Shown one piece after another: positions 799 through 54,030 of a stretch of DNA of 64,000 nucleotides (positions within the stretch are counted from its first letter, which is position 1; every line of letters starts with the position of its first letter). Source of the DNA: Lepidostoma basale (lineage: Eukaryota > Arthropoda > Insecta > Trichoptera > Lepidostomatidae). Under the pieces are notes generated by a model. The model was not told the origin of the DNA. It did not search any database and saw nothing but the letters and a program-made list of their open reading frames with translations. The DNA lies in NCBI GenBank assembly GCA_022606425.2, contig JAHDVF020001237.1, positions 1,385,001 to 1,449,000 of the forward strand. Reading direction: 5' to 3'. The translations under genes and the position numbers were made by a program.

Positions 799-1004
799 TT
801 TTAAATAATAATTAAATAAAACGATGTTTTTTAACTACTTCCACTTTTGTCTTTATTTAGACAGCGACCGGTTTCGCCAGACTCGCTGGCATCGACAGAC
901 CAGTCTGTCGATGCCAGCGAGTCTGGCGAAACCGGTCGCTGTCTAAATAAAGACAAAAGTGGAAGTAGTTAAAAAACATCGTTTTATTTAATTATTATTT
1001 AAAA
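799..1004. repeat. Perfect 206-bp palindrome with hammerhead-like cores
   Basis: Bases 799-900 and 903-1004 are reverse complements with no mismatch that I can find and a 2-base centre (CA). Each arm contains CTGTCGA, T, hairpin GCCAG-cgagt-CTGGC, GAAA, then the self-complementary ACCGGT and C (plus strand 905-937, minus strand 866-898). This is the hammerhead layout with one core change, A6 to T. GACAG before the core and CTGTC after it could form stem I. Perfect arms imply very recent formation or gene conversion. Confidence 0.85.
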
Positions 1005-1750
1005 TGAACTTCCATCAAGAGATTTCAGTAAAATCATTTGATTACCATTTTTTAATATTAACACCTACAACTGGGGATTTAGTTACATTACGTAAGGTGG
1101 ATTTTATCCCATTTTAAACTCAATTCACTCTCTCTTACTCTCCTCGCAGTACCGAGCGCTATCCAGTAGGGGAAATGAATCGGGGAGGTGTCAACACTCA
1201 TCCCTCTGAGCCGGAAAACAGGAGGATATACGAGTAGAATTCTATTCCCTTTCATATTGACAATACCCTCTCACGAGCCCTTCTGTCTACTCTCGCTACC
1301 TGCGGCTGCCTAACCCTTGCACCCTTTTGTTAGAACATCCCTCCTCCCTGCTTACAGATGCACTCCTTTGGGTGAATTATGTCTATATTTTGCTACGTAC
1401 ACCACTTAAATTGCGTTCTTTGAATTCGCATCAATAAATTTTCACAAAACTAGAACAAAACGTTTTGAATTTTTTAATTGTTCATATTACAGTTTAATTA
1501 TTTCGTAATAATAGTTTTTTAGTATTTATTATTATTAGGGTGGCCTTTATTTTCAACAACATTAATGTTATTTTGTAACTTGCCTTAAGTTGTTTTGTAA
1601 GAGTTTGGGAGTCGATAATGTTAAAGAATTCTAACTCGTGAATAATGCTTATATAAATGTAATTAAAAATCTTAATAGTGTATAATTGTTTGTATCAGAT
1701 AACTTTTAAACCATTTTACCCCATACATTAATTTTGAATATCCAAAATCT
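1005..1750. other. Unassigned; GC-richer patch at 1090-1380
   Basis: 1090-1380 is clearly richer in G+C than its surroundings and looks single-copy within the window. It has no long reading frame. It could be an old exon, a regulatory stretch or a decayed repeat. Confidence 0.4.
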
Positions 1751-1981
1751 TAGTAATTAATTTGAATGAAAACGTCTATCTTCAAGGAGTTTTATTATAT
1801 TTTAAATGGAATGACATGTGTCGCCCTTCTAAAGCATTATCAAATAAAAACATATGATAATATTTAGAAGGGCGAAACATGTCATTCTAATATATAATAA
1901 AACTCCTTGAAGACAGACGTTTTCATTCACGTTAATTATTGAATATGAAGGTTTACATCATTGTTCAATAAACAATAAACA
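1751..1981. mobile_element. Foldback family A, copy 1
   Basis: Two inverted arms: 'gaatgaaaacgtc...ggaatgacatg' and its complement 'catgtcattc...gacgttttcattc'. They are followed by the family's constant right end, around CATCATTGTTCAATAAACAA. No coding capacity. Each arm's inner end carries GGGCGAAACATGTC, the right half of the hammerhead-like layout described for the related foldbacks. Other copies are at 13218, 13599, 17786, 18195, 23430, 26190, 29455, 36960, 41795, 55745 and 63278. Confidence 0.75.
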
Positions 1982-1983
1982 AA

Positions 1984-2120
1984 ATCTTAACTAACTAACT
2001 AACTAACTAACCATCACGCCGTCTTTCCGAACTGGTAGGCAGCAAGAAAGGACTGCCACACTTTTCTTTCTTGACATATTTCCCTCGCTTCCTCAACATT
2101 CACACATCTTGACATGTTAT
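1984..2120 (-). mobile_element. LINE family B, 3' end with (TTAG)n tail
   Basis: The plus strand starts with CTAA repeats, then 'ccatcacgccgtct', 'ggtaggcag' and 'actgccacacttttct'. Read on the minus strand this is the last codons of the LINE (a '..YPSG..DGVMVS'-type ending) followed by a (TTAG)n tail. Same family as 10668, 16428, 22685, 38985, 47130, 55846 and 63379. Confidence 0.75.
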
Positions 2121-2325
2121 ATAACGCCTTAAGATTATATATATTTTTTCGATTTTTATCATCCTCAAAGCATAACCAGCTCTTTTGTGAATATATTTGT
2201 GAACCAATATTAAAAGTATTTTTTTTTATAAAAAAAAGACTAACACCAAAGATTTAAATAATCAATGATATTAGAATTTTTTTTACAATCTTCAATGTGA
2301 GCAGAAAATAGCTCATTATTATGAA

Positions 2326-2420
2326 GAAGGAATCTGGTCGTGTCCAGGCTCGAACCCAAGTCCCCTAGATCAGTAGCCAAGCGTTCTATCCCCTAGACCA
2401 CCACCCGATTTGGAGAGTAA
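2326..2420 (-). mobile_element. tRNA-like head, second SINE family or tRNA pseudogene
   Basis: On the minus strand there is a good A box (TGGTCTAGGGG, complement of 2390-2400) and a B box (GGTTCGAGCC, complement of 2347-2356) at tRNA-like spacing. Arm pairing is poor, so it is not a working tRNA. It differs from SINE family S. Confidence 0.6.
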
Positions 2421-2645
2421 TTAATGTCTTCTAGCGACCCATCGGTATGACAAAATCTTAGTTACCATTTTTTTAAATTTCATAATCTTTACATAATTCA
2501 ATTGAAAGATATTTTTTATCAATGAATAAATAGTTCACATGATACTCCCGAAATAAATTCACATATGAAGATAAATACACAAAAATATTTTTATATAATT
2601 ATTATTTTGTTGAGTCGATCTTTACAATAATACTTACAGGATATC

Positions 2646-2822
2646 TTTCATATTGATTTTCGTGACATGTAAGAGGTAGCTAATATATAGCCAATTTATT
2701 GTCACGTGAATTCTACACCAGACCAAAGAAAGTATGATAATCACACTGCCATCACTGAGAATCGAATCCAGGACCTTCGGTGTGGCAAACAAAAAACTTA
2801 CCACTCAGCCACGGTGGTCGTA
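2646..2822 (-). mobile_element. tRNA-derived SINE, family S copy 2
   Basis: Same order of blocks as copy 1: body with TTATTGTCACGTGAATTC, 'acaccagaccaaaga', a worn B box near 2755-2770, and the head ending in 'ggtggtcgta'. An insertion of A's splits the anticodon-side region. Confidence 0.75.
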
Positions 2823-3498: not shown

Positions 3499-3500
3499 AT

Positions 3501-5890: not shown

Positions 5891-6060
5891 AAATTCCATA
5901 TTATATAATTAATATAAATAAAAACGCCTGTCTTCCAGGAGTTTGATTGATTTTTTTATAATTAAACTGTAAACAACCGAAGTTTGTTTTTGTAACCCTG
6001 ACAAAGGTTGGTTTGATAAAACGAAATACAACGGGGTGAAATAAAAAAAGTATTTAAAAT
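5891..6060. repeat. Foldback fragments (family A left end and a family D-like piece)
   Basis: 5895-5945 matches the family A left end ('aattccatattatataattaata', 'aaaacgcctgtcttc'). 5960-6030 ('gtttgtttttgtaaccctgac') matches 14285-14315, part of foldback D. Confidence 0.5.
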
Positions 6061-6385: not shown

Positions 6386-6880
6386 CTGACAAGGAGTTTC
6401 AAAATACTTCCTTCTGTACAAGGCTAGTGTATAGTCCCAACAAGTCCAGGACGAATGGGCCATACGAGGGGAACGTGCCCGATATCTGTCAGAGGAAATT
6501 GCCTGCCTGAAGGTAGCCATTCTGATGATAACGTAATGCAATCATACCTATCTTCCTTTGTCTTCGTTTTACCTTATTTCGGCAGTCTTCGGCCTGTCGC
6601 TTTTGATCTGAAATGTGTGTTTATTTGATTTGAGTAGGTATGCGAAGATATTACAGTAATAAAATACCCAACTTCCTACATAAATAAAACATAAGGTTTC
6701 TAGGAGTTAAATTTTACGCGCTATGCGATTGTGAAACATTTTTAAAAAAATTTAATAATATCAACCCTTAGAATGGTTAACAATTGAAGTAGGTATAATC
6801 CTTTTTTTAATAGTACACTGTTTTGGCTGAAACAATCTGATACATCAACGTTATTAACTGTTAAATTATGAAACTCACAT
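6386..6880. other. Unassigned; GC-richer 6386-6545
   Basis: 6386-6545 is noticeably GC-richer and abuts the minisatellite. No family recognised. The rest is AT-rich. Confidence 0.35.
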
Positions 6881-6886
6881 AAATGG

Positions 6887-7025
6887 TATCACAATTTTAA
6901 ATTTTAAAATTTTCGCGACAGCTGTTTCGTTAATCTATGTTCATCATCAGGTGTTGCAATTTTTTAAAATATTAAAATGTACAAAATGGTGTTACAAAAT
7001 AATAAAAACTGTGATACCATAAACA
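6887..7025 (-). mobile_element. Foldback family C, copy 1, hammerhead-like core
   Basis: On the minus strand 6917-6950 reads CTGATGA, T, a weak hairpin, then CGAAACAGCTGTC. The core is intact and stem III (ACAGCTGT) is self-complementary. Flanking 'ggtatcacaatt' and 'gtgataccat' form the outer inverted ends. Only one core is present; the second arm is reduced. Related copies lie at 11955 and 53215. Confidence 0.7.
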
Positions 7026-8500: not shown

Positions 8501-8559
8501 AGAAGGAGAAATTTTATAGAAATACATTAATGTAAGAGATACATAACAAGAACAATAAT

Positions 8560-11555: not shown

Positions 11556-11910
11556 CGATAATGGCGGGAGCCTTTCACATTGCGTTAAAAAGATCTGCCG
11601 CTTAATGCTTAAAATCCAATCTTCATAGATGGCGCTAGTGTGTAGATTGAAACTACCATGTAAATGGGTAACACCACCCTTTAGGGTGGTGTTACAGATT
11701 AACATATATACAACTTTCAAAAAAATTGTCAGACATGGTGGTCATAAGAAAAGGTGGAATGGGGAATGTTGTATTACATAAAGCGTACGCTTAACCCAAC
11801 CAATGACAGGTCATAAGTCCTGTAAACACCTCGATCACCATATTATGTTTCCAATTTGCATCTTCGTCTCTATTGAGATACAATTAATACTTTAATATAC
11901 TTGTTATTCA
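11556..11910. mobile_element. Foldback family B, copy 2
   Basis: Same blocks as 4660-5035, plus a small internal hairpin 'taacaccaccctttagggtggtgtta' (11668-11694, given here in two arms 'taacaccaccct' and 'agggtggtgtta'). Non-coding. Confidence 0.75.
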
Positions 11911-11954
11911 TATTCAATCTGACAGTAAATTATTACATATATAATAAACTGTTA

Positions 11955-12160
11955 AATTAAAAAAAAAATTGTATCACAATTGTATTTTACTTTACCCGAC
12001 AGCTATTTCATCCACCTATGTTGACATCATCAGGTGTTACATTAATATTATTGTAACACCTGATGATGTCAACATAAGTTGATGAAACAGCTGTCGCGTA
12101 AAATGAAATACAATTATGATACAAAAAACAAAGCTATTTAATTTAACAGTTTAAAATGTT
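11955..12160. mobile_element. Foldback family C, copy 2, two head-to-head hammerhead-like cores
   Basis: Inverted arms around 'attaatattattg'. Plus strand 12060-12095: CTGATGA, T, hairpin GTCAAC-ataa-GTTGAT, GAAA, then CAGCTGT and C. Minus strand 11998-12033 carries the mirror copy with GAAATAGCTGTC. Stem III is the self-complementary ACAGCTGT. ATTGTA (5') and TACAAT (3') can close stem I. Confidence 0.75.
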
Positions 12161-13217
12161 AAGGTATCATAGTATTTCGGCCAAACAATGGACTATTTAA
12201 AATATATATTATAATATTACAGATTTTAATTAATCAAACTTTTATTTTACCTCTAAAATAATTTTTATGATTATTATATTTTTATTTAGATACGCAACGA
12301 GTGATTTTATATAAATGATTGACAAAATAATCAAATGTGATATTTAGCAACAAAGAAAAAGGAACTTACAAATATTATAAACTATGTCTTTAAATATAAA
12401 GTAAACTAATATAAATGTATCAACTAAAACAATATATATACTAAGAAAGATTTATAATTAAATATGAATTAAATGTACACACTTCGCAATGGAACACATT
12501 GTCAACACCGCACTCGTTACCATATCAGAGTAAATTAGGAATGAGATAATTTTATAACCTTATTTAATAAATTAACCATATTTTTTTAGTAAAACAAAGT
12601 AGGTTTGAATTTCTCATACTACTCCATACACCTCCATACACCCATGTGATTTTAGCTACTAGTAATATCTTATAAAACGAATGCGGATACGCCCTATTCG
12701 ATGTTATTGTATCACAAACAATATTGTTTGTCAAACAAATTTACGTTCGGAGTCGAGCGCTGTCAAATGGCGTATGGAGGTACAGGATTATTTAATATAA
12801 TGTATTCGGCTAATATGATTATTGACAAGCTCTTGTCTACTAAGCACGTAACCGTACCTACCCCGGCCGGGGGTTGTGCCAAGGAAGGACGTGTTTGCAA
12901 AATGATTAGTCGTATCCTGTTAATTTGTCGCGAAGTAATATCGCAAGATGAGGTAATTTCAAGATACACGAATCTAGAATATGAAATGTTTACGTAATAT
13001 TATTATGTAGAGGTTCGTAATGTGTGGGGATACGTAATATGTAAAGGTACATATTATACTATGTAGAGGTAAGCGATATGCGAGCTAATTATTAACATTA
13101 CATTAAAACAGTTTAGGTATAACATATAAAATTACACAGCATATAATAAAATATGATAAGTACAGTGTCCTTGAGATGTTTAATTCATGAAAAATGCCGC
13201 TTTAAAAATAATCAAAT
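12161..13217. other. Unassigned; GC-richer 12690-12960
   Basis: A 98-codon plus frame (12701-12997) with a CTG-rich middle ('ccccggccgggggttgtgcc') has no recognisable motif. Treated as undetermined. Flanks are AT-rich. Confidence 0.35.
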
Positions 13218-13516
13218 TTATAATTTATACGAATGAAAACGTCAGTTTTCTAGATGTTTCATTATCTTTTATGGGAATGACATGTTTCACATTATCAAAT
13301 TTTAGCAGAAGTTAGAAGGGTTTTCTATAAATATTATTATAGTTTGAAAAAAAAAAACTTTTATGCGGCTCATTTAATAATGCCTCAAAAAGGCAAAATA
13401 TGTAATTTCCATAAATTATAACTAAGATAATAGAATAAGATAATAAAATATAATAAAGACGTTTTCAATCGCATTATTGAATTAATACAGAGTTGTTTAT
13501 CTTTGTTCAAGGAACA
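13218..13516. mobile_element. Foldback family A, degenerate copy 2
   Basis: Left arm 'acgaatgaaaacgtcagttt', right arm 'gacgttttcaatcgcatta', right end 'tttgttcaaggaacaacaat'. The centre is expanded and decayed. Confidence 0.65.
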
Positions 13517-13517
13517 A

Positions 13518-13580
13518 CAATAAAATTAAGACAGTAATGTACAATGGTGTTATTTTTCCGATCCTAATGTATGGAAGTGC
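13518..13580 (+). mobile_element. LINE family B scrap with YGS motif
   Basis: Reads KTVMYNGVIFPILMYGSASV, matching the 'tlMYGSEaW' block of the LINE C-terminal region. About 20 codons only, wedged between two family A foldbacks. Confidence 0.55.
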
Positions 13581-13598: not shown

Positions 13599-13785
13599 GT
13601 GAAAATGAAAACGTCTGTTTTCTAGAAGTTTTATTATATTTTATGTGTGTGATATGTAACGCCTGTTATCAAACAATACAAAACATGTCATTCGCATAAA
13701 ATATAATAATACTTCTAGACAACAGAAGTTTTTATTGGTATTAATTAATTAATATGAAGTTTATAATTGTTCAAGAAAGTTTTTA
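13599..13785. mobile_element. Foldback family A, copy 3
   Basis: Arms 'aatgaaaacgtctgttttct' and its complement near 13700-13735, plus right end 'ataattgttcaagaaag'. Confidence 0.7.
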
Positions 13786-14215: not shown

Positions 14216-14335
14216 TTTCGAACTAACAGATTTTGCTTCCGCCGAAGCATCGTCAGTGTAACAAAAACAAACTTCGCCAGGGTTACAGTTTGTTTTTGTA
14301 ACCCTGACGGAGTTCCGGCGTGAGCGAAACAGGCT
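14216..14335. mobile_element. Foldback D with worn hammerhead-like core
   Basis: Minus strand 14225-14256: CTGACGA, T, hairpin GCTTC-cggcg-GAAGC, then AAAATCTGTT. The CTGANGA half and stem II are intact; the first G of GAAA is changed to A. A second, more decayed plus-strand arm (14312-14335) has CTGACGGA and GCGAAACAGG. Confidence 0.55.
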
Positions 14336-17785: not shown

Positions 17786-18005
17786 ATAATTAATATGAAT
17801 GAAAACGTCTGTCTTCTACGAGTTTTATTATATTCATGATGGAATGTCATGTTTCGCCCTTCTAAGGCATTATAAAATGGCCTTAGAAGGGCGGAACATG
17901 TCGTTCCATCTTAAATATACAAAAATTAAACTCCTAGAAGACAGACATTTTTATTCGTATTAATTATTTAATATAAAGTTTTACATCATTGTTCAAGAAA
18001 CAATA
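17786..18005. mobile_element. Foldback family A, copy 4 (well preserved)
   Basis: Left arm 'gaatgaaaacgtctgtcttc' to 'cgcccttctaaggcattat'; right arm 'ggccttagaagggcggaac' to 'agacatttttattcgtatta'; right end CATCATTGTTCAAGAAACAA. Confidence 0.8.
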
Positions 18006-18194
18006 AATAGTTTTACTTGGATTTAATTTATATAATAAATTGTAAAAATACTAGTGACAAATTTGTTTCGCCTTGCGAGGGCATTCCCAAACAAAGAGAG
18101 AATTTGGTATTTTTACAAAACTAATACCTAAATTATCAATTAAAATAAATGTCGCTTTCCAAATGGTTACCGAAAGTTATTTTTTTCTTACTTG

Positions 18195-18695: not shown

Positions 18696-19729
18696 TATAT
18701 GTCGGTATAGTTCAAGAATCATTGAATTAAATATTATATTATATTCTTGTAAAATTATAATACAAAATTCTGTAGAGAAATGGTTTGATGTTAATAAGAA
18801 AATATGTAAAATACGTAAAATTACAATATAAAAAAATGTTTAAGCAAAAATTAAATATGCGAAAATTTATTGCGAAAGATTAGTTTCAAAGGGACATTGT
18901 AGATAAGTTTTTGTTTTAGTTAGAAACATTACACTTTCCTTTATCTCAACCCTCCGAATCTCTTCTCCGGAGCCAATGCGGGGTACAGGGTTGTTGGATT
19001 AAGGGTTATAATATCTGGTTACTTGAGTCATTAAGTAAAGGTTAGTTCCATTGTGCTCGCTAAAGGCCTTGGGTGGACGCGCATTATGGGAATATGTGCC
19101 CTTGAAACTAGCATTAGTGCGGGTCCTAATGAATTCCTAGCTAAACTTGCGATCTAATGAAATATATACACGTACATGTAAGTAACTTACGTAATATAGC
19201 ACATATGTTGTATGGTAACAAGGACGAGAGTTTTGAAAGATAATATTATTTATGTGTCAATAAAAAAAAACGGATTCAAATTCTTTAACTAATGATTATT
19301 TCTTTGTAAACAACACTGTATTAATTTTTTAAATAAATTAACACAAAAATATTTCCTACACAGAACGCCTTCATCAGCGTAGTTCTTTATTTTATATACA
19401 AAATAAACATTTAAACAAAATTTTCATGAATGTGGTCAGTTTTGAAAGATATTAAAACATTTTATATATACAACAATTAACTACAGAGATGAAGGACTTC
19501 TGTGTCAAAAACATGTTTGTGTTCGTTTAATTAATTTTTATAAGAAAGTGTTGTTTAAAAAAAAACATTACTGTTGTTGCATCTTTGGTAATATGTTGGA
19601 TATTCTTGGCTGCAGTGCTGTCTCTGACGAAATGCTGCATTCACGTGCAGTCTATTCCTTTGTTTCGATTTTATTGAGGGCATGAACGAAAATACTTTTT
19701 CGTATAAATAATCTTACATTTAATATTTT
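18696..19729. other. Unassigned spacer
   Basis: 18935-19140 is GC-richer with no motif. On the minus strand near 19362-19382 a lone CTGATGAAGGCGTTCTG resembles the first half of the hammerhead-like cores, without the GAAA half. Confidence 0.4.
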
Positions 19730-23429: not shown

Positions 23430-23650
23430 AATATTTAATATTTATGAAAACTTCCGATTTATATAATTTGTATTATATTTTATTTGAGTGACATTTAAAG
23501 CAATATATTATTAAATGTTCAATTTCATAAGGCCCCAAAAAGCGAAACCCAACATTTTTTAATGCAACTTCTGGAAAAAGAACGCTATGATCAATATTAA
23601 ATAGAATATGGAAAATATGGAGTTTTACATCATTGTTCAAGAAACAATAA
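23430..23650. mobile_element. Foldback family A, degenerate copy 6
   Basis: 'tatgaaaacttccgat', 'gccccaaaaagcgaaaccc' and right end CATCATTGTTCAAGAAACAA are recognisable; arms are heavily mutated. Confidence 0.6.
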
Positions 23651-23669
23651 ATTACGTATGTGTGTGAAC

Positions 23670-26189: not shown

Positions 26190-26612
26190 AAATAATTAAT
26201 ACGAATGAAAACGTCAGTTTTCTAGAAGTTTTATAATATTTAATGGGTATGATATGTTCCGCCCTTTTAAGGTAATATCAAATATGGCATAATTTCAGCT
26301 CGTTGCTGTTTATGTACACTAGTAAATGGAGCAGAATATGATTATTAACGAAAATTGATGTAGCTTTATACGTTTTTAACAAACAATTATTTGGGTATTT
26401 TTGTAACCATAATTACCATATTCTGCTCTTACTAGTGTATATAAACATGAACGAGCTGAAATTTCGCAACATTTAATAATGCCTTAGAAGGGCGAAATAT
26501 GTCATTCCCATAAAATATAATAAAACTTCTAGAAAACTGACGTTTTCATTCGTATTAGTTATTTAATACGAAGTTTTACATCATTGTTCAAGAAACAATA
26601 AAAATAGAATAT
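26190..26612. mobile_element. Foldback family A, long copy 7
   Basis: Outer arms as in other copies (26209-26285 and 26475-26555). The inner arms extend the palindrome with 'tttcagctcgttgctgttta' and 'taaacatgaacgagctgaaa', then 'gagcagaatatg' and 'catattctgctc'. Central loop about 26346-26401. Right end CATCATTGTTCAAGAAACAA. Likely the fullest form of the family. Confidence 0.8.
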
Positions 26613-29185: not shown

Positions 29186-29450
29186 GCTAAGGCATTAACA
29201 CTGTGGAGTTCCATTGTAATATACTTAGAAAATTGAAAATAACTTTGATTAATCCACTATTTATTAAAAACATATAAAAAACACGACATGTTTCGGAGGA
29301 TACTTCCATCTTCAGGTGTACAAAAATATAATATATTATATTTTTACACCACAAAAAAAATATTTTTGATAAAATGTTCATTTTAAACAAAATTTTATTT
29401 TCAACAAAAAGTTTATTCTGAACAAAAATGTTTATATCAACTAAAATGTT
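29186..29450 (-). mobile_element. Foldback E with intact hammerhead-like core
   Basis: Minus strand 29281-29319: ACAC, CTGAAGA, T, hairpin GGAAG-tat-CCTCC, GAAA, CATGT, C, GTGT. ACAC/GTGT form stem I directly at the core; stem III is the self-complementary ACATGT; C17 is present. The second arm is lost; downstream is a run of 'aaaatgtttat' repeats (29370-29450). Confidence 0.65.
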
Positions 29451-29454
29451 TATA

Positions 29455-29637
29455 ATTAATACAAATGAAAACATCAGTTTTCTAGAAGTTTTATTGTATT
29501 TTATGGGAATGACATGTTTCGCCCTTCTAAGGTATTATCAAATGTGATATTTGACATTTGATAATAGAAAACTGACGTTTTCATTCGTATTAATTATTTA
29601 ATATGGGTTTAACATCATTGTTGAAGAAACAATAAAT
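29455..29637. mobile_element. Foldback family A, copy 8
   Basis: Left arm 'acaaatgaaaacatcagttt' to 'cgcccttctaaggtattat'; shortened right arm 'gaaaactgacgttttcattc'; right end 'aacatcattgttgaagaaac'. Confidence 0.75.
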
Positions 29638-36599: not shown

Positions 36600-36720
36600 A
36601 ATAAAAAATACATATTAAAAATATCATATACCACATGTTTTGTAGGCGCCTTCCTTCATCCTCAGATGGATCCTACAAACCAAAGAAAGGCTCATGAAAT
36701 AAAAATATTTTGTTAAAATA
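36600..36720 (-). mobile_element. Foldback F, decayed hammerhead-like core
   Basis: Minus strand 36631-36665: CTGAGGA, T, GAAGGAAGGCGCCTAC, AAAACATGTGG. The first core half is intact; GAAA has become AAAA and the final C is G. Flanks 'tttgtaggcgcc' and 'ggatcctacaaac' form a short inverted repeat. Confidence 0.45.
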
Positions 36721-36959: not shown

Positions 36960-37160
36960 TTTATTATTTCTTGAACAAGGAAGTAAAACTTCACATTAAC
37001 TAATAAAACCGAATACAAATTACGCTTTCTATAAGTTTTATTATGTTTTATGGGAACATCATGTTTCACATTTAAAAATGTCTTAGTAGAAATGTCATTC
37101 TCCGTAAAAATAATTAAACTTCTATTAAACTGATGTTGTCAATAGTTTTAATGATGTATT
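36960..37160. mobile_element. Foldback family A, degenerate copy 9 (inverted)
   Basis: 'tatttcttgaacaaggaagt' is the complement of the family's right end. 'aagttttattatgttttatg' and 'gggaacatcatgtttcaca' are arm blocks. Confidence 0.6.
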
Positions 37161-37470
37161 TGATATTACCCGACTATTTTTATGAAACGATCGCTATTTT
37201 GATTTCACATAAGAAGAAAGAATTTAAACTTTATTTTATTATGCCCTGATTGTTAATTTCTTCCAATTTCATACAGTGACACAAGATGTTAACATTTTAA
37301 TGCATTAATCATACAATCACACAAATTCATCATCTCTTTTCTCATATAAATAGTATTCAAATAAAACGAAGCTGATTTTATGCTTAATATCGAATTTTTT
37401 ATAATAATGTTCAATAAATAAGATTCTAAAATCATACAGGTGTATTGGGGTAAGTAGAGTTTTTTTTATA
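37161..37470. other. AT-rich spacer
   Basis: Nothing recognised. Bases 37469-37470 (TA) are the left copy of the mariner target duplication. Confidence 0.5.
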
Positions 37471-38757
37471 TTAGGTGTATAACTTTGCTTCCGTCGTTTT
37501 TTTCCGAAATTCGAGGCTTTATCGTAAAAAACTGGTTATACATTTATGATTCAAAGTATTGTCCATCGCTGGCCACTACTTTCTCCCATCTTTCGGGCAG
37601 CATACGAATCCCGCGTTGAAAAAACTGGTCATCTTTTGAAGCGATCCACGAATCGATCCAATTTTTTACTTCTTCATAAGACCGGAAGTGCTGGTCAGCT
37701 AGGCCGTGTGCCATTGATCGAAACAAGTGATAGTCCGAGGGAGCAACGTCTGGAGAATACGGCGGGTGGGGTAGGACTTCCCATTTCAAAGTTTCCAAGT
37801 ATGTCTTGACCACTTTCGCAACATGGGGTCGAGCATTGTCATGCTGTAAAATCACTTTATCATGTCTCTCGTTGTATTGCGGCCGTTTGTCTTTCAATGC
37901 TCGGCTCAAACGCATTAATTGCGTTCGATAACGATCGCCTGTGATTGTTTCAGTCGGTTTTAACAACTCATAATACACTACGCCGAGCTGGTCCCACCAA
38001 ATACTGAGCATAACCTTGGAACCGTGAATATTCGGTTTGGCCGTCGACGTGGAAACATGGCCGGGATATCCCCATGATTTTCTGCGCTTGGGATTATCGT
38101 AATGAACCCATTTCTCGTCCCCAGTCACAATGCGATGCAGAAATCCCTTCCGTCTTTGCCTTGCAAGCAGCTGTTCACAAACACACAAACGCCGTTCAAC
38201 ATCTCTCGGCTTCAACTCGTACGGCACCCAATTTCCTTGTTTCTGAATCATTCCCATGACTTTCAGGCGTTTTGAAATGGCTGGTTGCGTCACTCCCAAT
38301 GATCCTGTCAATTCTTGTTGCGTTTGACACGAGTCTTGATCAAGTAATGCCTCCAATTCTGCATCTTCGAAAACCTTCTCTCTTTCACCGCCATGCTGGT
38401 CTTCGACGTTAAAATCACCGTTCTTGAAGCGTTGAAACCACTCTCGGCACGTTCTTTCACTAATAGCGGCCTCACCATAGGTATTTGAGAGCATTCGATG
38501 AGCGTCAGCCGCAAATTTTTTCATATTAAAGCATAAAATTAAAACCTCCCGCAAATGACGAGAATTTGGCTCGTAAGCTGACATGTTTAATCGGGAATAA
38601 CTTTATGATGCAGACACAAATCGACTAATATTTCGATGGCGTTATGTTTACAAATACTTAAGCTTATTGTATGACATCTATGATCTATTTATTCCAACTA
38701 CCACTTACCGCTACTGCCATCTATTGCAAAACGGCGGAAGCAAAGTTATACACCTAA
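37471..38757 (-). mobile_element. Complete mariner transposon, 1287 bp
   Basis: Terminal inverted repeats start TTAGGTGTATAACTTTGCTT at 37471. The complement ends ...CACCTAA at 38757. About 25 of the first 27 bases agree, the main difference being CCGTCG versus CCGCCG. TA lies immediately outside both ends (37469-37470 and 38758-38759), the target duplication of the Tc1/mariner superfamily. It encloses one full-length transposase. Total length is typical for mariner. Confidence 0.95.
37544..38584 (-). CDS. Mariner transposase, apparently intact
   Basis: A 346-codon uninterrupted frame, the usual length for mariner. It cuts and pastes its own element by binding the terminal repeats as a dimer in the nucleus. 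The N-terminal half holds two helix-turn-helix regions: residues about 5-50 with ISERTCREWFQRF, and about 75-110 with SLGVTQPAISKRLKVM. The linker motif WVPYEL is at 119-124. The catalytic triad is D156 (VTGDEKW), D249 (LQHDNARPH) and D284 (APSDYH), with 34 residues between the last two: D,D34D. YSPDVAP (277-282) matches the family's YSPDLAP. The ATG is 173 bp inside the right end of the element. No stop or frame shift, so it may still be active or only recently silenced. Subfamily not assigned. Confidence 0.93.
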   Translation of the reverse strand: MSAYEPNSRHLREVLILCFNMKKFAADAHRMLSNTYGEAAISERTCREWFQRFKNGDFNVEDQHGGEREKVFEDAELEALLDQDSCQTQQELTGSLGVTQPAISKRLKVMGMIQKQGNWVPYELKPRDVERRLCVCEQLLARQRRKGFLHRIVTGDEKWVHYDNPKRRKSWGYPGHVSTSTAKPNIHGSKVMLSIWWDQLGVVYYELLKPTETITGDRYRTQLMRLSRALKDKRPQYNERHDKVILQHDNARPHVAKVVKTYLETLKWEVLPHPPYSPDVAPSDYHLFRSMAHGLADQHFRSYEEVKNWIDSWIASKDDQFFQRGIRMLPERWEKVVASDGQYFES

Positions 38758-38759
38758 TA

Positions 38760-38984
38760 TTATTCATGATATTATTCATTAATGAATAACAAAATAATGG
38801 TTGAATTGCAGAAAACATAATATTTATAAATAAAAAAACGATTATTATAAACAAAATATTCCTCGTTTAATTTCATTATCATCGTCTGACATATATTATA
38901 TTGTATAGTATTATAAATAATTAGTTTTATATTGTATAAATTAAAAAATAATTGTTGTAAACAAGCTGTGTGATTAGTAAGAGA
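38760..38984. other. AT-rich spacer
   Basis: Nothing recognised. Confidence 0.4.
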
Positions 38985-40599: not shown

Positions 40600-40915
40600 A
40601 TTTTTATGTTTTAATATACTTTGTATATACAACACTATTAACATTACATATCAGACATGTTTCGGACAACCAGTCCTTCTTCAGTGATCTTCTTCTTCTT
40701 CTTCGATGGCCCTACAGCCCATATCGAGCCTTAGTCTCCAGTATTCTTCGCCTCCAACTCCTCCTGTCCTCCGCTTCCTTCTTCAGTGATACATATTTTA
40801 AATATGTATCTTTATAATATGTATCACTGAAGAAAGACTGGTTGTCCGAAACATGTCTGATATGTAATTTTAATAGTGTTGTATGTACCTACAAAGTATA
40901 TATTATTAAAAAAAG
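40600..40915. mobile_element. Foldback G with two hammerhead-like cores
   Basis: Inverted arms 'actttgtatatacaacacta' and 'tagtgttgtatgtacctaca'. Plus strand 40819-40865: ATGTATCA, CTGAAGA, A, hairpin AGAC-tggtt-GTCC, GAAA, CATGT, C, TGATATGT. ATGTATCA pairs with TGATATGT to give an 8-bp stem I with two G-T pairs. Minus strand (from 40646) carries the mirror core with a perfect GGAC/GTCC stem II. The left arm is split by a LINE scrap at 40689-40775. Confidence 0.75.
40689..40775 (-). mobile_element. LINE family C, 87-bp 5'-truncated insertion
   Basis: Matches 41903-41995 ('cttcgatggccc(t/c)acagcc', 'catatcgagccttag', 'tcctcctgtcctccgct'). Flanked by a perfect 15-bp target duplication TCCTTCTTCAGTGAT at 40674-40688 and 40776-40790. 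On the minus strand it ends in (GAA)n. A textbook target-primed insertion. Confidence 0.9.
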
Positions 40916-40932: not shown

Positions 40933-41342
40933 GTTTCCATTTTGGATTTTTTCGTTGTTCTAGATTATCACAAATTTTCGAAAATTTCATTAAAAACATT
41001 AGTTTATACCATATCGATTATTAAGGAGGGGCCGCCTTATATTCATGCCCCAAATATAGAAGGTAACAATAAATTCACAACTCGCGATTAACAAAATGGT
41101 GCCTTCAATGGCGGAATTGTTTACATATCACATTGTGGTTTCCATTTTGGATTTTTTCGTTGTTCTAGATTATCACAAATTTTCGAAAATTTCATTAAAA
41201 ACATTAGTTTATACCATATCGATTATTAAGGAGGGGCCGCCTTATATTCATGCCCCAAATATAGAAGGTAACAATAAATTCACAACTCGCGATTAACAAA
41301 ATGGTGCCTTCAATGGCGGAATTGTTTACATATCACATTGTG
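40933..41342. repeat. Perfect 205-bp tandem duplication
   Basis: 40933-41137 and 41138-41342 appear identical. Each copy holds the same open frame VSILDFFVVLDYHKFSKISL ... IIKEGPPYIHAPNIEG ... TTRD. The unit does not match the other repeats here. Confidence 0.9.
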
Positions 41343-41794
41343 GTTTCTGACAGTTAGAAGGTGTTTTTTGTATTGTGCTTTATTAAGTACATCTTTACTC
41401 CTTAAAAACGATATGGTTAACCATATTGAAAGACAAGCTTAAAAAAACCCAAATATTTCGAGGAATACGCATAATCCATGATTCCAATTTCATGTTTGTG
41501 TTGGCACGTGGTGCCGAAATAATCAACAACTTTGGGTTTGCTAGAAAATTTTGTATCACGGAAAATAATATCAGACAAAGCCGAATGGCTGAGGAATTAT
41601 CGATTGAAATATAAAACTAAAATCGATTGAAGGATATTTCATAATACATAATTTCATAATGGTGAGTGAAATGTGATTTTTATTAGTCAATTGAAATTAT
41701 AGGGCCGATACTGTATTTCACAATTTATTAATTATGCGTGATGAAATTACATTATTTATTATTTCTTAAAAAATGAAGTAAAATTCCATATTAC
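41343..41794. other. Unassigned
   Basis: A 62-codon plus frame (41426-41614) with IRIIHDSNFMFVLARGAE is protein-like but unrecognised. It could belong with the duplicated frame just upstream as a decayed gene. Confidence 0.3.
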
Positions 41795-42560
41795 ATAATT
41801 AATACGAACGAAAATAACTGAAAATATAATATTTTACATTTTTAAGGCATTATCAATGTCATTTCCATAAATTGTAATAAAACTTGTCTTCTTTTTTCTT
41901 TTTCTTCCTATTCTTTTTCTTCGATGGCCCCACAGCCCATATCGAGCCTTAGCCTCCAGTATTCTTCACCTTCAACTCCTCCTGTCCTCCGCTTCGACAC
42001 TCCAATCTGGCACTCGTAACAATTTCGCCCCATCTCTCCTAACTTCATCTACCCATCCGTCCCTTGGTCGTCCAATTAGTTTTCTACCACCTGGGTGCCT
42101 TTCCAGCAATCTTTTTGGGGTTCGCGATGACGGCATCCTCTGCACGTGACTGGCCCATCTAAGTCTATTCAGTCTAACCTGTGTGGAGAGACTGGGAGCT
42201 TTGTAAATATTGTACAGCTCGACATTATGCCGCACTCTCCAGCCTTCGCCGTCATTCACAGATCCTAGAATTCTGCGCAGCACCCTTCTCTCAAAAGTAT
42301 CCAGTCGCTCTGCGGATTTCGCTGTCATTGTCCACGCCTCACACCCATAGGTCACCACTATTCGAATGATTGTATTATACAGGAAGATTTTGGTTTTTCT
42401 GTGTACGTTTCTTGATTTGAGCACTGGTAGTAGAGAGAAGAATGTTTTGTTGCCAATTGTGATTCTTCTTTCGATTTCCTTGTGATCTTTTTTTTTTTCT
42501 ATTTCCATAAATTATAATAAACTTCTCCTAGAAAATAGACGCTTTCATTCGTATTAATTA
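41795..42560. mobile_element. Foldback family A, copy 10, split by a LINE
   Basis: Left part 41795-41886 ('aattaatacgaacgaaaata' to 'aattgtaataaaactt'), right part 42503-42560 ('atttccataaattataataa', 'gacgctttcattcgtatt'). The LINE C copy sits between. Confidence 0.75.
41887..42502 (-). pseudogene. LINE family C, C-terminal 178 codons
   Basis: Minus-strand frame open from 42508 to 41972. EIERRITIGNKTFFSLLPVL, LYNTIIRIVVTYGCEAWTMT, FERRVLRRILGSVNDGEGWR, RHNVELYNIY, RLRWASHVQRMPSSRTPKRL, GRPRDGWVDEVRRD. This is the conserved tail downstream of the reverse-transcriptase palm in RTE-like LINEs (YGCEAW; FERKVLR; RLRW-GHV-RM). The catalytic palm is absent, so it cannot move itself. The 3' end is (GAA/AAG)-rich. 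Flanked by an imperfect duplication of about 23 bp ('atttccataaatt(g/a)taata', 'aaactt'). Confidence 0.85.
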
Positions 42561-48310: not shown

Positions 48311-48604
48311 GAAAGAAATATATTTTCGATGTGATTGTTTTAATGAAAAACATTAATGGTGCGGTCGCATAATACACCTTAATCTGATAATGAAAAAAAG
48401 CCCTTTATAGTATGTATAATCTTTAGTTTTACTTTATTGAAGGATAACGCGTTAACACTATGTAATTGCATTACAATTTTGAATAGAAATATATAACTAA
48501 ACAAAGGAGTTTACCTCCACACGTGATTAATATTTTTATGCTGTGAAAATATTTAATAAATAAAAGTGGATAAACAGTGTTATTAATTCTATTCCAAATA
48601 CCTA
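48311..48604. other. AT-rich spacer
   Basis: Nothing recognised. Confidence 0.4.
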
Positions 48605-48725
48605 ATTATGTTTCACTCCGCTTGATTTTTAGTTTCGACCGGTTTCTGCAGCTCGCTACCATGTTCTGGTCCGGAAGACAGCAGCAAGTTGCAGAAAACT
48701 GTCGAAACCAAAAATCGATCGACAC
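48605..48725. mobile_element. Foldback H, decayed hammerhead-like cores
   Basis: Minus strand 48633-48669: CAGAACA, T, hairpin-like GGTAGCGAGCTGCA, GAAACCGGTC. The GAAA half with self-complementary ACCGGT is intact; CTGANGA is mutated. Plus arm 'agcagcaagttgcagaaaac', 'tgtcgaaacc' mirrors it. Confidence 0.55.
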
Positions 48726-50884
48726 ATTCAATTAAATATTTTTATTTGCGTTACTAACAATAAATTTCTACCGCGAAGTTTTAATGATCGACATAAATAC
48801 AACTAAATTTGGTATTTAACAATTTGATTCCTTCCTGTTACTTAGCTGTACCTACAGCCGACCCGTGTCGAAACTAATCATTGTTTTGATTAAATCAATC
48901 GTACCTTTCACTAAAATTTACTAGAAAAATCATTATAACTTTGTGATATATCAAAATCACATTAGTTTCAATAATTTAAAAAAATCTATGTGTTCAACAC
49001 TTCTTTAATATGACAAAGTATAAGGGTACGTCTTTCCTTTATGAGAGATGATATATTTCTAATATTTATCTTCAACTCGGGTTAAGAAATGTTATGGTTT
49101 ATTAAAAATATTAATAAAAAACTCTTTGAGCATTAAACAACTCTTATAATAGACTCATCGCAACAAAATGTATCTCACCTTAACATGTGAATCATGTAGT
49201 GTTTACATAAATAATTTTTACTATTTTGGTAAATATTTTTTGGTGATACACAGTTTCTCTAGTTTAGTTTATTCTTCTAGTGAATTCTAGGAGCACTGTA
49301 TTTTAATCTCCTCGCCCCGCCAGGAATTCGCTTTGTAGGTACCACAAAGAAGGCTAGGAAATCGTGGGTATGAGATTCCTCAGTTAAAATGTAAATCCCA
49401 AATATGGCATAGGCAACAAAAGGAATTTAGGACATTAAATATTTACTAGACTAACAACGCGTTTACAATGTGCGTATGGTTCTTTATCCTCTGCTTAACA
49501 TAACCATAGCCTTGTGAGACCTACCCGTCACATACTAAATCTCTTGCTAATTTGAATTCCGGGGTTCATACGTTTAAGGGTAATTAATTGTTCATATTTT
49601 ATGATATTAAATTATTTGATATTAATTCATTAGTCTGCAAATGCCCTACGGATCAGAATACCGGGCCGCAAGGCGACAAGAAGAACAAACGATAAAAAAA
49701 TCACAATCAACACCACCAAATTGTTCTCCTGTTGTTTTTTTACAGTACTTCAGACAAAAATAATCTGAACAAAATTCAAAATAACCCAGAACGTTTTCGG
49801 GCATGCGCTTTGAGTTCAGGGAATCGAACTATAACTCTCTCTCTGTCTTGTATTCAAAACATTATGACATTCGGGTTTTTGCCTATTTATATTATGATAA
49901 GTTTGCAATAAAGCATAAAAGTATTTTTAAACCACTAGGAAAAAAATCAGTAACAATTGTCGAAAATTATATTAACTTGTAGATATATTTAAATACAATG
50001 AAAGGTTTTACTAATGTTATATATTTTTTGTAGAAATTTGTTTAAATCTGCTTTACAGGCAACTTTCAGAAACTATACGAATTTAATATAAAGAAGATAA
50101 CGGCTCTTCAACATTTTTAATTAATTTGGGAGTGCGGGAAGAGGATAATCATACGAATCAGAATACACCGCTCTAAGACGTACTGATTTATAAGGAAAAG
50201 GTATTTTCGCTTACCAAAAACATTGTAAGTTAAATGTTTTATTTTTTCAATTTGTGATATTTTAAAATTAAATTTATGTTTTTAACCCTTTCTAACCGAA
50301 ATTGTGACGATATCAACAATGAAAATTATCTTGTATGCAAAATTTTAATTCAAAATTATGTAATTATGATTTCCATAAATATTTTTGAATTAAGGCATAA
50401 AATTGTGAGGGGGTCGTTTTGCGGTAGAATGGGTCCTTTATTAAATTCAACGAGTGTTTCTTATTGCGGCTCGTTTTCTGAATTGTACAGAAAATTAGAT
50501 TGCATTAGGACGATAATGCAGGCTCTAATTTGATAATTCGTCTGAAATGGCATCCATTTACGCAATTTTCATATAATTCAGTTGAAAATATTACCACATT
50601 GCAGTTATTAAAAGTAGATACGCCGTATTTAGAATGATTGTAAATAAAACATATTTTTTTAATTCTTACAACATACTTTTTCCATGAGTGAAAGCAAGAG
50701 AAATAACGATAGAACAAATGGGTTAGCGTACAATCATGTGTACCCTACCATTAATTTTTCATATATATTATAATATAATCTTAAAATGACGGAAAATAGT
50801 GGGAAGCTGCCGAAACCGATGAAAATAGTACGGTATTCACAGCTGAAATGTGCACAAGACAGTGCAGTGAGCGACAATACCTAA
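48726..50884. other. Unassigned AT-rich stretch
   Basis: About 2.1 kb without a recognised gene or repeat. GC-richer islands at 49290-49390, 49650-49690 and 50405-50480; a plus frame 50276-50533 has no motif. Confidence 0.35.
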
Positions 50885-51295: not shown

Positions 51296-51328
51296 TTATA
51301 AAAATATAATTATTATAACTAACGTATT

Positions 51329-51590: not shown

Positions 51591-51724
51591 TGTAATTATT
51601 TACAATCTTTTATGAGAATACAGAATTTTAGTTAACAGTTGGTTATTTCTTATTTTTATGAAATAAATAAGATGGTAGTTCAAAAATAAAAACAAATACA
51701 CCATCTACAAAAAGTGAATCAGAC

Positions 51725-52095: not shown

Positions 52096-52099
52096 TAAA

Positions 52100-52430
52100 T
52101 ATTCCAAAGAATTTTGTATAACTTAAAAATGTTATTAAGGATTAATTTTATCTCAATAGAGACGAAGATGTAAATTGTTTTTTTTTCTTTCTTTTTTTTG
52201 GAATTGTTGTCATAGGTTGGGTTAAGCGATCGCTTTATGTAATACTACATTCCCCATTCCGTCCTTCTTACGACCTCCACGTCTGACAAATTTTTGAAAG
52301 ATGTATATATGCTTATATGTTGAGGAACACTTCACATATTTTTGTTCAATCTTTATAGCGCCATCTATTAAGATAAGGTTAAGCATTAAGCAGAAAATCG
52401 TTATTAATGCAATGTGAAAGGCTTCGCAAT
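52100..52430. mobile_element. Foldback family B, copy 5 (reverse orientation)
   Basis: 'attaattttatctcaataga', 'gggttaagcgatcgctttat', 'acattccccattccgtcc', 'cacgtctgacaaatttttga', 'atagcgccatctattaagat', 'taagcattaagcaga'. Confidence 0.75.
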
Positions 52431-52499
52431 TATCTTACATTGCTAGATAACGCCTGAAGAGGGCTCTCCAATTTTTATGCTTTAACTTGAACCAGTTTT

Positions 52500-52745
52500 T
52501 TTATACAACATGGAAATTTTGTATTACATAAAGCGATCGCTTAACCCAACCAATGACAGGTCATAAGTCCTGTAAACGCCTCGACCACCATATTGTTGAA
52601 TAAAAATATAAAAAAAACAATTTACATTTTCGTCTCTTTTGAGATAAAATTAATCCTTAAAAAAAAAAATAGCCCGCAAGGGGTTAAATCCAGTATTTGT
52701 ATACAAGTATTTGTATACATTCAAAATGTCGTTAAAAATGTTTCT
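52500..52745. mobile_element. Foldback family B, copy 6 (forward orientation)
   Basis: 'ttacataaagcgatcgctta', ACCCAACCAATGACAGGTCA, 'taagtcctgtaaacgcctcg', 'ggttaaatccagtatttgta', 'tacaagtatttgtatacatt'. With copy 5 it forms a large inverted pair around 52430-52500. Confidence 0.75.
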
Positions 52746-53214
52746 TTGTATTTGTTTTTGGTTAAATTGAAATATTAGATGGTAAAATCTTTTTTATATA
52801 AAATAACGTTATTTATATGAAAATAAATATTTGCTTCATCTGAGGAATAACTCTCTGAATCATTTTAAGATGAATATCATGTTCTGTTAAGCAAAACAGA
52901 TCATTCAGTAATAAGAGAAATACTCGAGTGTTGTGAAGTTGGAGACAATTTTCTTTTGTTTCAAAGGATTCTAAAATATGAAAGACATTTTTCAAGAGTA
53001 AACTCGTTTACGCCGTTGACAGATTCGTTTGAGGTATGTAGATAAAACATAATAAAATGGAAGATGGAATAAGATAAATGTTTCTTCGAAAAACGCGACA
53101 AGCTCTGGAAACTTTATTAATGATACAACGCTGCAGTAGATAATAAACGGATTATTTTTGTTTTATATTTTTTAAATAAAAGAAATAATATATTTACTCT
53201 TAAATTATAAAATG
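52746..53214. other. Unassigned spacer
   Basis: Nothing recognised. Confidence 0.4.
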
Positions 53215-53430
53215 CCTTTTTAATGGTATCACAATTATAATTATTTAAATTTTTTGCGACAGCTGTTTCGTCAACCTACTCGTATGTTGAGATCATCAGG
53301 TGTTACAATATTTTTTTCAACAGTTAAAATTTAAACATTTGAAACAAATATTGTAACACCTGACAATGAAAACATAGCTTGACGAAATAGCTGTCGCAAA
53401 ACAAATTGTGATACCATAAAAATGGCGTTT
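53215..53430. mobile_element. Foldback family C, copy 3, two head-to-head cores
   Basis: Minus strand 53258-53299: CTGATGA, T, hairpin CTCAAC...GTTGAC with a longer loop, GAAA, CAGCTGT, C. Plus strand 53360-53395: CTGACAA (G8 lost) ... GACGAAATAGCTGTC. The minus core is intact; the plus core has decayed. Outer ends 'tggtatcacaatt' and 'attgtgatacca'. Confidence 0.75.
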
Positions 53431-53954
53431 TATAATATGAACCATTTAGAAAAAAAATATTATACAATAATATTAAACGAGTAAAATACCTAAACAAACA
53501 AAAATGTTATGGTTACCTTTTGATATGAAAATTGAACTAATTTTCATCTCTTGGTAAAAGTACTTATGAGGGTTGTTGCTGCAAACTTTTAATAAATGTG
53601 TATATCTACACACACTTTCTTACACATATACATATATACAATACATATATACATATATAGAATACAAATATAGATATATTATATAAAATATATGTTTATT
53701 GGTTGAAAAGTGTGCTATTAGGGTTACTCGTATAACATAATTTTAAAGCAAAAATAAATAACATGAATTAAGTTCAATTAAAATTATTGAATATACTTAT
53801 GGTAATTATAAATCAAAATTGATTCAAACAGAATCCTAGAGGCATCTTAAAAAAATAATATTGTTATTTGAAATTTCATGGTAGAAGTTCATTGTAAATA
53901 ATGAAAATATATTTTTTTGTAAAAATCTTTTTAAAATGTATATTCAGTAAAAAT
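53431..53954. other. AT-rich spacer with TA-type microsatellite
   Basis: 53620-53695 is a (TATACA)n/(TA)n-like microsatellite. Nothing else. Confidence 0.5.
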
Positions 53955-54030
53955 TTACTAATATTTGTGTCCAAGACCGATTTCGGCAGCTCACTGCCAT
54001 CTTCTGATGGCTAAAACCGGACGAAGACAC
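53955..54030. mobile_element. Foldback H-like, hammerhead-like core
   Basis: Minus strand 53975-54006: CAGAAGA, T, hairpin GGCAG-tgag-CTGCC, GAAA, TCGGT, C. One core base (U4) differs; stem II is perfect. The plus arm 'cttctgatggctaaaaccgg' is decayed. Confidence 0.55.

What the first reader, a model, noticed from the sequence alone, without database searches (positions are those of the whole stretch)
866..54006. One RNA layout shared by at least seven unrelated foldback families
CTGANGA + one base + hairpin + GAAA + palindrome + TC is found, with decay, at 866-937, 6917, 12000-12095, 14225, 29281, 36631, 40646-40865, 48633, 53258-53395 and 53975. Family A has a mutated version (TTGATAA ... 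GGGCGAAACATGTC). Stem II is GCCAG/CTGGC, GTCAAC/GTTGAC, GCTTC/GAAGC, GGAC/GTCC or GGCAG/CTGCC. Stem III is ACCGGT, ACAGCTGT or ACATGT. Change of paired sequence with a constant core is the mark of selection on RNA structure. Most are arranged as two opposed copies, which is unusual and not explained by simple DNA-transposon ends.
Basis: inference. Interest (0 to 1): 0.8.

Follow-up and report, generated by a model that had tools for sequence, protein, structure and literature searches.

The report
Opposed hammerhead ribozymes in Penelope-type foldbacks
Several short hairpin-shaped repeat families in this animal (arthropod-like) genome carry a tiny RNA-cutting motif, the hammerhead ribozyme, mostly in two opposed copies, which looks like the footprint of Penelope-type retrotransposition rather than a new kind of RNA or a DNA transposon.

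Summary
The layout is a minimal type I hammerhead ribozyme (HHR) with a loopless palindromic stem III: 7 sites reach descriptor score 18, against 0 in 30 shuffled windows, and stems II and I stay paired across families. Energy folding does not single out the hammerhead dimer (1 of 5 arms). The repeats look like non-coding insertions made by Penelope-like element (PLE) machinery. HHRs lie head to head. In family A the whole insert is flanked by target-site duplications of varying length: 9-14 bp in 5 of 9 two-ended copies, a marginal 7 bp in one, none found in 3. A 41-nt 'tail' sits on one end only (9 copies, one weak). These are published PLE signatures. Arms resemble each other by copy more than by side, so each foldback was probably made anew. 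Family A's 'mutated' core is the compensated U3-A8 pair, reported in natural HHRs. No PLE protein was found (0 of 40 ORFs of 100 aa or more), and the host genome could not be reached. Known parts, unusually stripped arrangement; moderate interest.

The parts
799..1004 (.). Family C foldback; HHRs 898-866 (-) and 905-937 (+), stem III ACCGGT, core CTGTCGA
   Evidence: arms 102 nt, 100% complementary, 2 nt apart; descriptor scores 18.8 and 19.2; cut to arm end 67 nt both sides
1754..1979 (.). Family A foldback with tail on the right (1939-1979), TSD CAAAATCTTA
6804..6960 (-). Family B single arm with tail; HHR 6950-6917, stem II damaged
   Evidence: 73.6% match to 12202-12050; alignment
11945..12202 (.). 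Family B foldback; HHRs 12033-11998 (-) and 12060-12095 (+), stem III ACAGCTGT; tail on the right only
   Evidence: self-inverse 11945-12153 and match of 6804-6960 up to 12202; scores 18.0 and 21.5; alignment
13221..13520 (.). Family A copy 13a; right arm and tail at noise level, no TSD found
13604..13778 (.). Family A copy 13b, tail right, no TSD found
14231..14329 (.). Family I foldback; HHR-like 14252-14225 (-), stem II GCTTC/GAAGC, stem III decayed
   Evidence: self-inverse 74%; sequence
17787..18007 (.). Family A foldback, tail right, TSD GTTTTACTTGGAT
23432..23651 (.). Family A copy, tail right, no TSD found; right arm itself too diverged for the arm scan
26193..26602 (.). Family A foldback with longer 5' parts on both arms; tail right; TSD AATAGAA (7 bp, marginal)
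29240..29390 (.). Family E; HHR 29315-29285 (-), stem I ACAC/GTGT, stem II GGA/TCC, stem III ACATGT; other side of the short palindrome lacks the HHR
   Evidence: score 19.5; self-inverse only 29315-29350; outer bounds guessed
29453..29636 (.). Family A foldback, right arm shortened, tail right, TSD TAAAATGTTTATA
36600..36690 (-). Family H, weak HHR-like motif 36665-36631
   Evidence: score 14.2, within the shuffled range
36960..37152 (.). Family A copy, tail on the left, TSD ATGTATTTG
40614..40901 (.). Family D foldback; HHRs 40684-40654 (-) and 40827-40857 (+, stem II damaged); centre interrupted by another insert
   Evidence: 91% self-inverse; score 20.5 for the left; 9-bp stem I in the fold of the right arm
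41755..42560 (.). Family A foldback opened by a LINE-like insert; tail on the left; TSD TGAAATTACATTAT
48600..48740 (.). Family G; decayed HHR 48664-48633 (-), stem III ACCGGT
   Evidence: sequence; bounds approximate; below the descriptor threshold
53204..53436 (.). Family B foldback; HHRs 53299-53258 (-) and 53360-53395 (+); no tail seen on either arm
   Evidence: self-inverse 73%; score 20.0 for the left; alignment
53921..54076 (.). Family F foldback; HHR 54006-53975 (-), the right arm has lost stem II
   Evidence: self-inverse 73%; cut to arm end 54 nt both sides; below the descriptor threshold

Best explanation
The repeats are short PLE-type retrotransposon insertions without coding sequence. 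Most consist of two head-to-head arms; an arm is a minimal type I hammerhead ribozyme plus 40-67 nt up to a first reverse-transcription start, and in families A and B a further 40-50 nt 'tail' leads to a second start. Shown: hammerhead sequence layout with pairing kept across dissimilar families; constant orientation (5' side of the HHR to the centre); TSDs of varying length and a one-sided tail in family A; similar spacing in A and B; arms that agree by copy more than by side. Inferred: a PLE reverse transcriptase/GIY-YIG nuclease encoded elsewhere in the genome binds the RNA, cuts both strands of an AT-rich target, starts copying inside the RNA at one of two starts, runs back through the HHR and ends just upstream. 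The second arm is made by self-priming of the cDNA or by priming from the other target strand. The HHR would cut the source RNA as a dimer through the palindromic stem III, or with help of the protein. An opposed pair gives only one sense HHR per transcript, so the foldbacks are likely end products of other source RNAs rather than the replicating form.
For: Descriptor 7 v 0 in 30 shuffles; stems II and I paired across families. The dimer fold of one B arm pairs all 8 palindrome bases between strands. Family A TSDs of 10, 13, 13, 14 and 9 bp, random-pair p 0.0006-0.006, plus a marginal 7 bp (p 0.047), among 9 two-ended copies. Tail on exactly one end in those 9, one weak. HHR cut to arm end 55-64 nt in A (4 arms) and 53-59 in B (3 arms); to tail end 96-105 (3 arms) and 105-110 (2 arms); C 67, D 40 and 44, F 54, B53 54 and 41. 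Sites grouping arms by copy/side/cross: 28:7:2 in A, 7:0:2 in B. 2 of 4 exact-pattern sites of the window have an inverted 14-mer within 600 nt against 0 of 134 chance matches in viral contigs. Published PLE features: inverted pLTRs, 8-10 bp TSDs, a 31-bp tail on one inverted pLTR, palindromes at head-to-head junctions (PMC3846280); a PLE protein that cuts and extends both strands, with two internal RT starts that define the tail (PMC11167929).
Against: No PLE RT or GIY-YIG domain among 40 of 40 stop-to-stop ORFs of 100 aa or more (shorter or broken pieces not searched). The host genome was never reached. TSDs are shown only for family A: B, C, D, E, F, G, H and I gave none beyond controls (approximate bounds), and 3 of 9 A copies have none; for the 7-bp one a cross-copy control reached 8. 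B53 has no tail. Minimum-energy dimer folds pair the palindrome with itself in 1 of 5 arms only, and no monomer fold of those five exact arms shows all of stems I and II as drawn (one search showed both for D, but on a blended string). No hammerhead match in Rfam for the window or three short stretches. Stem I is poor in A, H, G and I (2, 2, 1 and 1 of 4 pairs). Activity was not tested.
Confidence: 0.82

Rival explanations
1. Foldback/MITE DNA transposons whose terminal inverted repeats happen to hold the motif, moved by a transposase.
For: Long inverted arms (C: 102 of 102); several copies in A and B; no coding sequence.
Against: TSD length varies 7-14 bp within family A; one end is about 41 nt longer than the other; arms group by copy more than by side; ribozyme-like pairing kept across families. 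Families C to I have too few copies for the first two tests.
Confidence: 0.07
2. A self-propagating class of foldback elements, copied as whole hairpins (RNA or DNA), with PLE enzymes only borrowed at insertion.
For: Short arm-only structure in most copies; 5' ends of arms lie within roughly 100 nt upstream of the HHR core (read, not measured by script), unlike random 5' truncation of a long element.
Against: Arms of one copy share copy-specific letters, which needs re-copying of one arm from the other or gene conversion; a transcript of a foldback holds one sense and one antisense HHR, so no cis dimer.
Confidence: 0.1
3. Metazoan retrozymes (tandem, 150-450 bp, canonical type I HHR, circular RNA).
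For: Type I HHR, non-coding, AT-rich, TSDs larger than 4 bp (PMC7229834, passages).
Against: Two-armed copies are head to head, not in tandem; stem III has no loop of its own; a one-sided tail is a PLE mark.
Confidence: 0.05
4. Chance motif matches in AT-rich palindromes.
For: At low scores hits approach the shuffled number (26 v 16.1); exact-pattern scans of viral contigs gave 134 chance-like matches, 21 of them with a stem II of 3 bp or more.
Against: 0 of 30 shuffles reach score 18, where the window has 7; stem I pairing.
Confidence: 0.02

Closest known systems
Minimal type I hammerhead ribozymes of Penelope-like elements (Cervera & de la Pena 2014; Lunse et al. 2017: neither held here, recalled, and cited through passages of PMC7761336 and PMC6155905)
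   Same: Core; very short or absent own stem III; proposed action as dimers; thousands dispersed in animal non-coding DNA, some in PLE pLTRs
   Different: Here placed in short opposed pairs, in family A with TSD and tail; the passages I read do not describe the context of the dispersed copies
Inverted pLTRs of Penelope elements in Adineta vaga (PMC3846280; passages and Discussion read)
   Same: Head-to-head inverted units, 8-10 bp TSD in some copies, 31-bp tail on one unit, palindromes at the junction
   Different: There the pLTRs (about 180-220 bp) mostly accompany an ORF or captured DNA, though solo pLTRs occur; here the arms are about 100 nt and usually nothing lies between them
PAc, Poseidon of Anolis (PMC11167929; parts 1-2 of 4 and passages read)
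   Same: HHR upstream of two internal RT starts 30-40 nt apart; protein extends both target strands; commonest start is 85-92 nt after the HHR cut by my arithmetic (111-118 minus 26)
   Different: PAc is autonomous and tandem; its HHR overlaps the ORF start
Natural HHRs with U3-A8 in place of C3-G8 (PMC3088659, section 8 read)
   Same: Same compensated core pair as family A; the paper's legend of Figure S8 also notes palindromic stem III in Aedes and other HHRs
   Different: Here in a whole repeat family
Metazoan retrozymes (PMC7229834, passages read)
   Same: Non-coding repeats with type I HHR
   Different: Tandem, canonical HHRs; no tail mentioned in the passages seen

Membership tests
Hammerhead ribozyme, minimal type I | Core CUGANGA ... 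GAAA with H17 (GUC) | tested here: met
   B, D, E exact; C and F with one core change. Family A has U3/A8: of 16 arms, 15 could be aligned; C3 is T in 14 and G8 is A in 15. Of these, 17R reads through the centre, 13bL aligns poorly, 55 and 63 are copies of one insertion, and G5 is changed in 5 of 15
Hammerhead ribozyme, minimal type I | Three stems kept by compensatory change | tested here: met
Stem II 25/27, stem I 24/36, stem III 26/27 pairs over 9 representatives; 0, 53 and 991 of 20000 partner shuffles as good.
Hammerhead ribozyme, minimal type I | Dimer through palindromic stem III favoured in folding | tested here: inconclusive
   Palindrome pairs with itself in the minimum-energy dimer of 1 of 5 exact arms (B12R); B53L, C, D, E pair otherwise
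Hammerhead ribozyme, minimal type I | Self-cleavage | not testable with these tools
   No wet assay
Hammerhead ribozyme, minimal type I | Match to an Rfam hammerhead family | tested here: not met
   No hammerhead match in the whole window or in three short stretches; a minimal stem III probably scores too low, which I did not check against the models
Penelope-like element, insertion structure | Head-to-head inverted terminal units | tested here: met
   HHR 5' side faces the centre in the two-armed copies with a readable HHR
Penelope-like element, insertion structure | 30-40 bp tail on one end | tested here: met
   Family A, 9 two-ended copies, one weak; B12 and the single arm B6.9; not B53; C to I not testable (one copy each)
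Penelope-like element, insertion structure | TSD round the whole insert | tested here: met
   Family A, 5 of 9 clear and 1 marginal; not shown in the other families
Penelope-like element, autonomous | ORF with telomerase-like RT and usually GIY-YIG nuclease | tested here: not met
   0 of 40 ORFs; the one RT found belongs to a gypsy element. Not filed as an autonomous PLE
Penelope-like element, non-autonomous | A PLE in the same genome with the same ends | not tested
   The genome search did not complete; the fetch from genomes was not tried
DNA transposon / MITE | Fixed-length TSD and symmetrical ends | tested here: not met
   Family A only: TSD 7-14 bp, one-sided 41-nt tail
Metazoan retrozyme | Direct tandem arrangement | tested here: not met
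   Two-armed copies in the window are inverted

The most novel reading that the evidence does not exclude
A distinct class of minimal PLE satellite: two opposed arms, each only an HHR and two RT-start sites at fixed spacing (cut to first start about 55 nt, to second about 100 nt), re-made from one RNA at every insertion by self-primed or two-sided reverse transcription. Many unrelated families would have kept or converged on this layout, and they would account for the thousands of minimal hammerheads dispersed in animal non-coding DNA.
Probability: 0.3. Interest if true: 0.7.

Novelty: new member of a known kind. Interest (0 to 1): 0.5.

Why it matters
PLEs are a poorly understood class of eukaryotic retrotransposon, and the in vivo role of their minimal hammerheads is called a mystery in print (PMC7761336, passage). 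These small inserts show ribozyme, reverse-transcription start spacing, tail and TSD together, without a large element round them. They are natural insertion products with which the two-sided and self-primed models can be tested, and they suggest a context for dispersed minimal hammerheads.

Tried and rejected
Rfam: the 11 matches in the window (miRNA, bacterial sRNA and other models) all lie below their gathering scores and look like hairpin artefacts (also 20-22). DNA-transposon reading set aside on TSD and tail of family A. Related loci by pattern in viral contigs: 134 matches in 134 stretches, 21 with stem II of 3 bp or more and 3 of those with 4 or more, 0 with an inverted 14-mer within 600 nt, i.e. 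chance level (one search lists 80 of its 119). TSDs for families other than A: nothing beyond cross-copy controls. The TSD table used slightly different bounds; the second is reported. A mariner search (120 of 3500 hits listed) was used only to place the host: the named hits in the list are arthropod proteins, which does not fix the species because mariners jump between hosts. Gene conversion between arms as the cause of within-copy similarity cannot be excluded.

Literature limits: Cervera 2014, Lunse 2017 and Craig 2021 are not held (one search used a wrong DOI for Lunse), so I do not claim that such foldbacks are undescribed. Paper searches. Passages also seen in PMC6431247, PMC10085705 and PMC12910113, of little use here.
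Full report
What was checked. The window is 34% GC and full of repeats. A mariner transposase ORF whose named relatives in the listed hits are arthropod proteins and a gypsy-type element point to an animal, probably arthropod, genome; the species was not identified. The finding lists about ten places with the layout CTGANGA, one base, hairpin, GAAA, palindrome, TC.

The motif is real. Seven sites score 18 or more; none does in 30 dinucleotide shuffles. They belong to five repeats (C, B at 12 kb, E, D, B at 53 kb). Six lie inside inverted arms; that of E lies beside a short palindrome. The 15 short foldbacks that I picked by hand cover 4.7% of the window; 11 of the 15 belong to families with the motif by my reading, and those at 11658, 19299, 23811 and 52132 do not. 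Lower down, signal and noise mix (26 sites at score 13 against a mean of 16.1), so the sites at 36631, 48633 and 14225 stand only by analogy. In hammerhead terms (numbering from established knowledge) the layout is: C3-A9, an extra base, stem II, G12-A14, a stem III that is a 6 or 8 nt palindrome with no loop (ACATGT, ACCGGT, ACAGCTGT), and U16.1-C17, after which the RNA would be cut.

Pairing. Across nine representatives the three outer pairs of stem II are formed in 25 of 27 cases (mean 15.9 with partners shuffled; 0 of 20000 as good), four pairs of stem I in 24 of 36 (15.9; 53 of 20000) and stem III in 26 of 27 (22.7; 991 of 20000). Energy folding is less kind. In five exact arms the palindrome pairs with itself in the minimum-energy dimer only for B12R (8 of 8); in B53L, C.R, D.R and E.L other pairings win. 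The right arm of D forms a 9-bp stem I, and a blended D string formed both stem I and stem II. Rfam reports no hammerhead here. The case for a hammerhead thus rests on core sequence, conserved pairing and context, not on folding energy.

Of 16 arms, 15 could be aligned; C3 is T in 14 and G8 is A in 15. Two of these arms are doubtful (17R reads through the centre, 13bL aligns poorly), two (55.7 and 63.3 kb) are the LTR copies of one insertion, and G5 is changed in 5 of 15, as expected of old copies. C3 and G8 pair with each other; U3-A8 is reported as a natural covariation, and such ribozymes as active in vitro (PMC3088659 section 8). Stem II and III are intact in the family consensus; stem I is weak (2 of 4 pairs). 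The family may thus descend from a working variant; I did not test it.

What carries the motif. In the two-armed foldbacks with a readable HHR the 5' side of the HHR faces the centre and the cleavage site faces outward. Family A gives the best view, with nine two-ended copies. Each has, on one end only, up to 41 nt beyond the point where the other arm stops. Copy 13a is weak: its right-end scores (36 and 33) are below the best chance match in the reversed window (37); two further tail-like matches near that level (18326, 35209) were left unassigned. The insert including the tail is flanked by direct repeats: CAAAATCTTA, GTTTTACTTGGAT, TAAAATGTTTATA, TGAAATTACATTAT and ATGTATTTG in five copies (random-pair p 0.0006-0.006), a marginal AATAGAA in a sixth (p 0.047; a cross-copy control reached 8), none in three. 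The lengths vary, as in retrotransposition and unlike cut-and-paste transposition. Family B has a tail on the right arm of the 12-kb copy and on the single arm at 6.9 kb, and none on the 53-kb copy. For the other families no TSD stood out, with approximate bounds.

Common spacing. From the HHR cut to the arm end is 55-64 nt in A (4 arms) and 53-59 in B (3 arms); to the tail end 96-105 (3 arms) and 105-110 (2 arms), measured to end motifs that I chose from the alignments. In C, F and D the arms end 67, 54 and 40-44 nt after the cut, in B53 54 and 41. Two families without BLAST similarity thus share both distances. A fold of a typed family A consensus puts the end of the shorter arm in the loop of a 10-bp hairpin and the end of the tail just after a second hairpin; B is less clear.

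How the arms arise. For four two-armed A copies compared in six pairs, 28 sites group the arms by copy, 7 by side and 2 crosswise; for B12 against B53, 7, 0 and 2. The pairs are not independent, and by overall identity the two arms of a copy are nearest neighbours only for the 1.8-kb copy. Still, lasting left and right lineages are not seen, so each foldback was likely made at insertion from one RNA, or kept alike by gene conversion. Arms meet with 0-2 nt between them in B12, B53 and C; the reported gap is 11 nt in A17, 25 in A13b, 30 in F, 63 in A26 and 83 in A1.8, where the inner parts have diverged. Near-loopless centres suit self-priming; the wider ones do not decide.

Comparison. Adineta Penelope elements have inverted pLTRs, TSDs of 8-10 bp in some copies, a 31-bp tail on one of the inverted pLTRs, and palindromes at head-to-head junctions that the authors read as self-priming (PMC3846280; passages and Discussion). 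The Anolis PLE protein cuts and extends both target strands and starts reverse transcription at two internal sites; the sequence between them is the tail; its HHR cuts only with the protein present and is not needed for insertion in vitro (PMC11167929; parts 1-2 of 4 and passages). Minimal type I HHRs are said to occur by the thousand in animal genomes, mostly dispersed, in some cases in PLE pLTRs (PMC7761336; passages). The window fits all three. What I did not see in the passages read is the arm-only foldback, here mostly about 160-410 bp, as a product in several families. The two key papers on PLE hammerheads are not held, so no claim of priority is made.

Limits. No PLE protein was found (40 of 40 ORFs of 100 aa or more searched; shorter pieces not). 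The own-genome search did not complete eight times, so copy number, a parent PLE and genome-wide TSDs remain open. Activity is inferred from sequence.

Noticed in passing
37468-38760: Mariner element with 33-bp terminal repeats (97%) and an uninterrupted 352-aa transposase ORF (37544-38602, minus strand), 93% identical to the nearest listed database protein.
   Followed up: partly
54457-63546: Gypsy-type element with 1557-nt direct end repeats 99.8% identical and gag/pol ORFs; each end repeat contains the same family A arm (55746-55794, 63279-63327).
   Followed up: partly
40693-40777 and 41911-41995: The same LINE-like 3' end (94% alike) sits inside two different foldbacks (D and the 41.7-42.6 kb family A copy), near the centre; palindromic centres may be a favoured target.
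   Followed up: partly
40933-41347: Direct repeat: 210 nt, 100% identical, at a period of 205 nt.
   Followed up: no
52132-52663 and 19299-19565: Two foldbacks in which no HHR was recognised; the first has GCGATCGC-bearing arms and relatives at 4.8, 11.7, 16.8 and 48.1 kb.
   Followed up: no
5970-6010: A stretch like the family I arm (GTTTGTTTTTGTAACCCTGAC) directly beside a family A arm with part of a tail.
   Followed up: partly
families A and B, tail: The tails of A and of the 6.9-kb B copy end just after a TTGTT...AACA-type hairpin although the families are otherwise dissimilar; possibly a protein-binding or RT-start signal. The 12-kb B copy does not fold so.
   Followed up: partly
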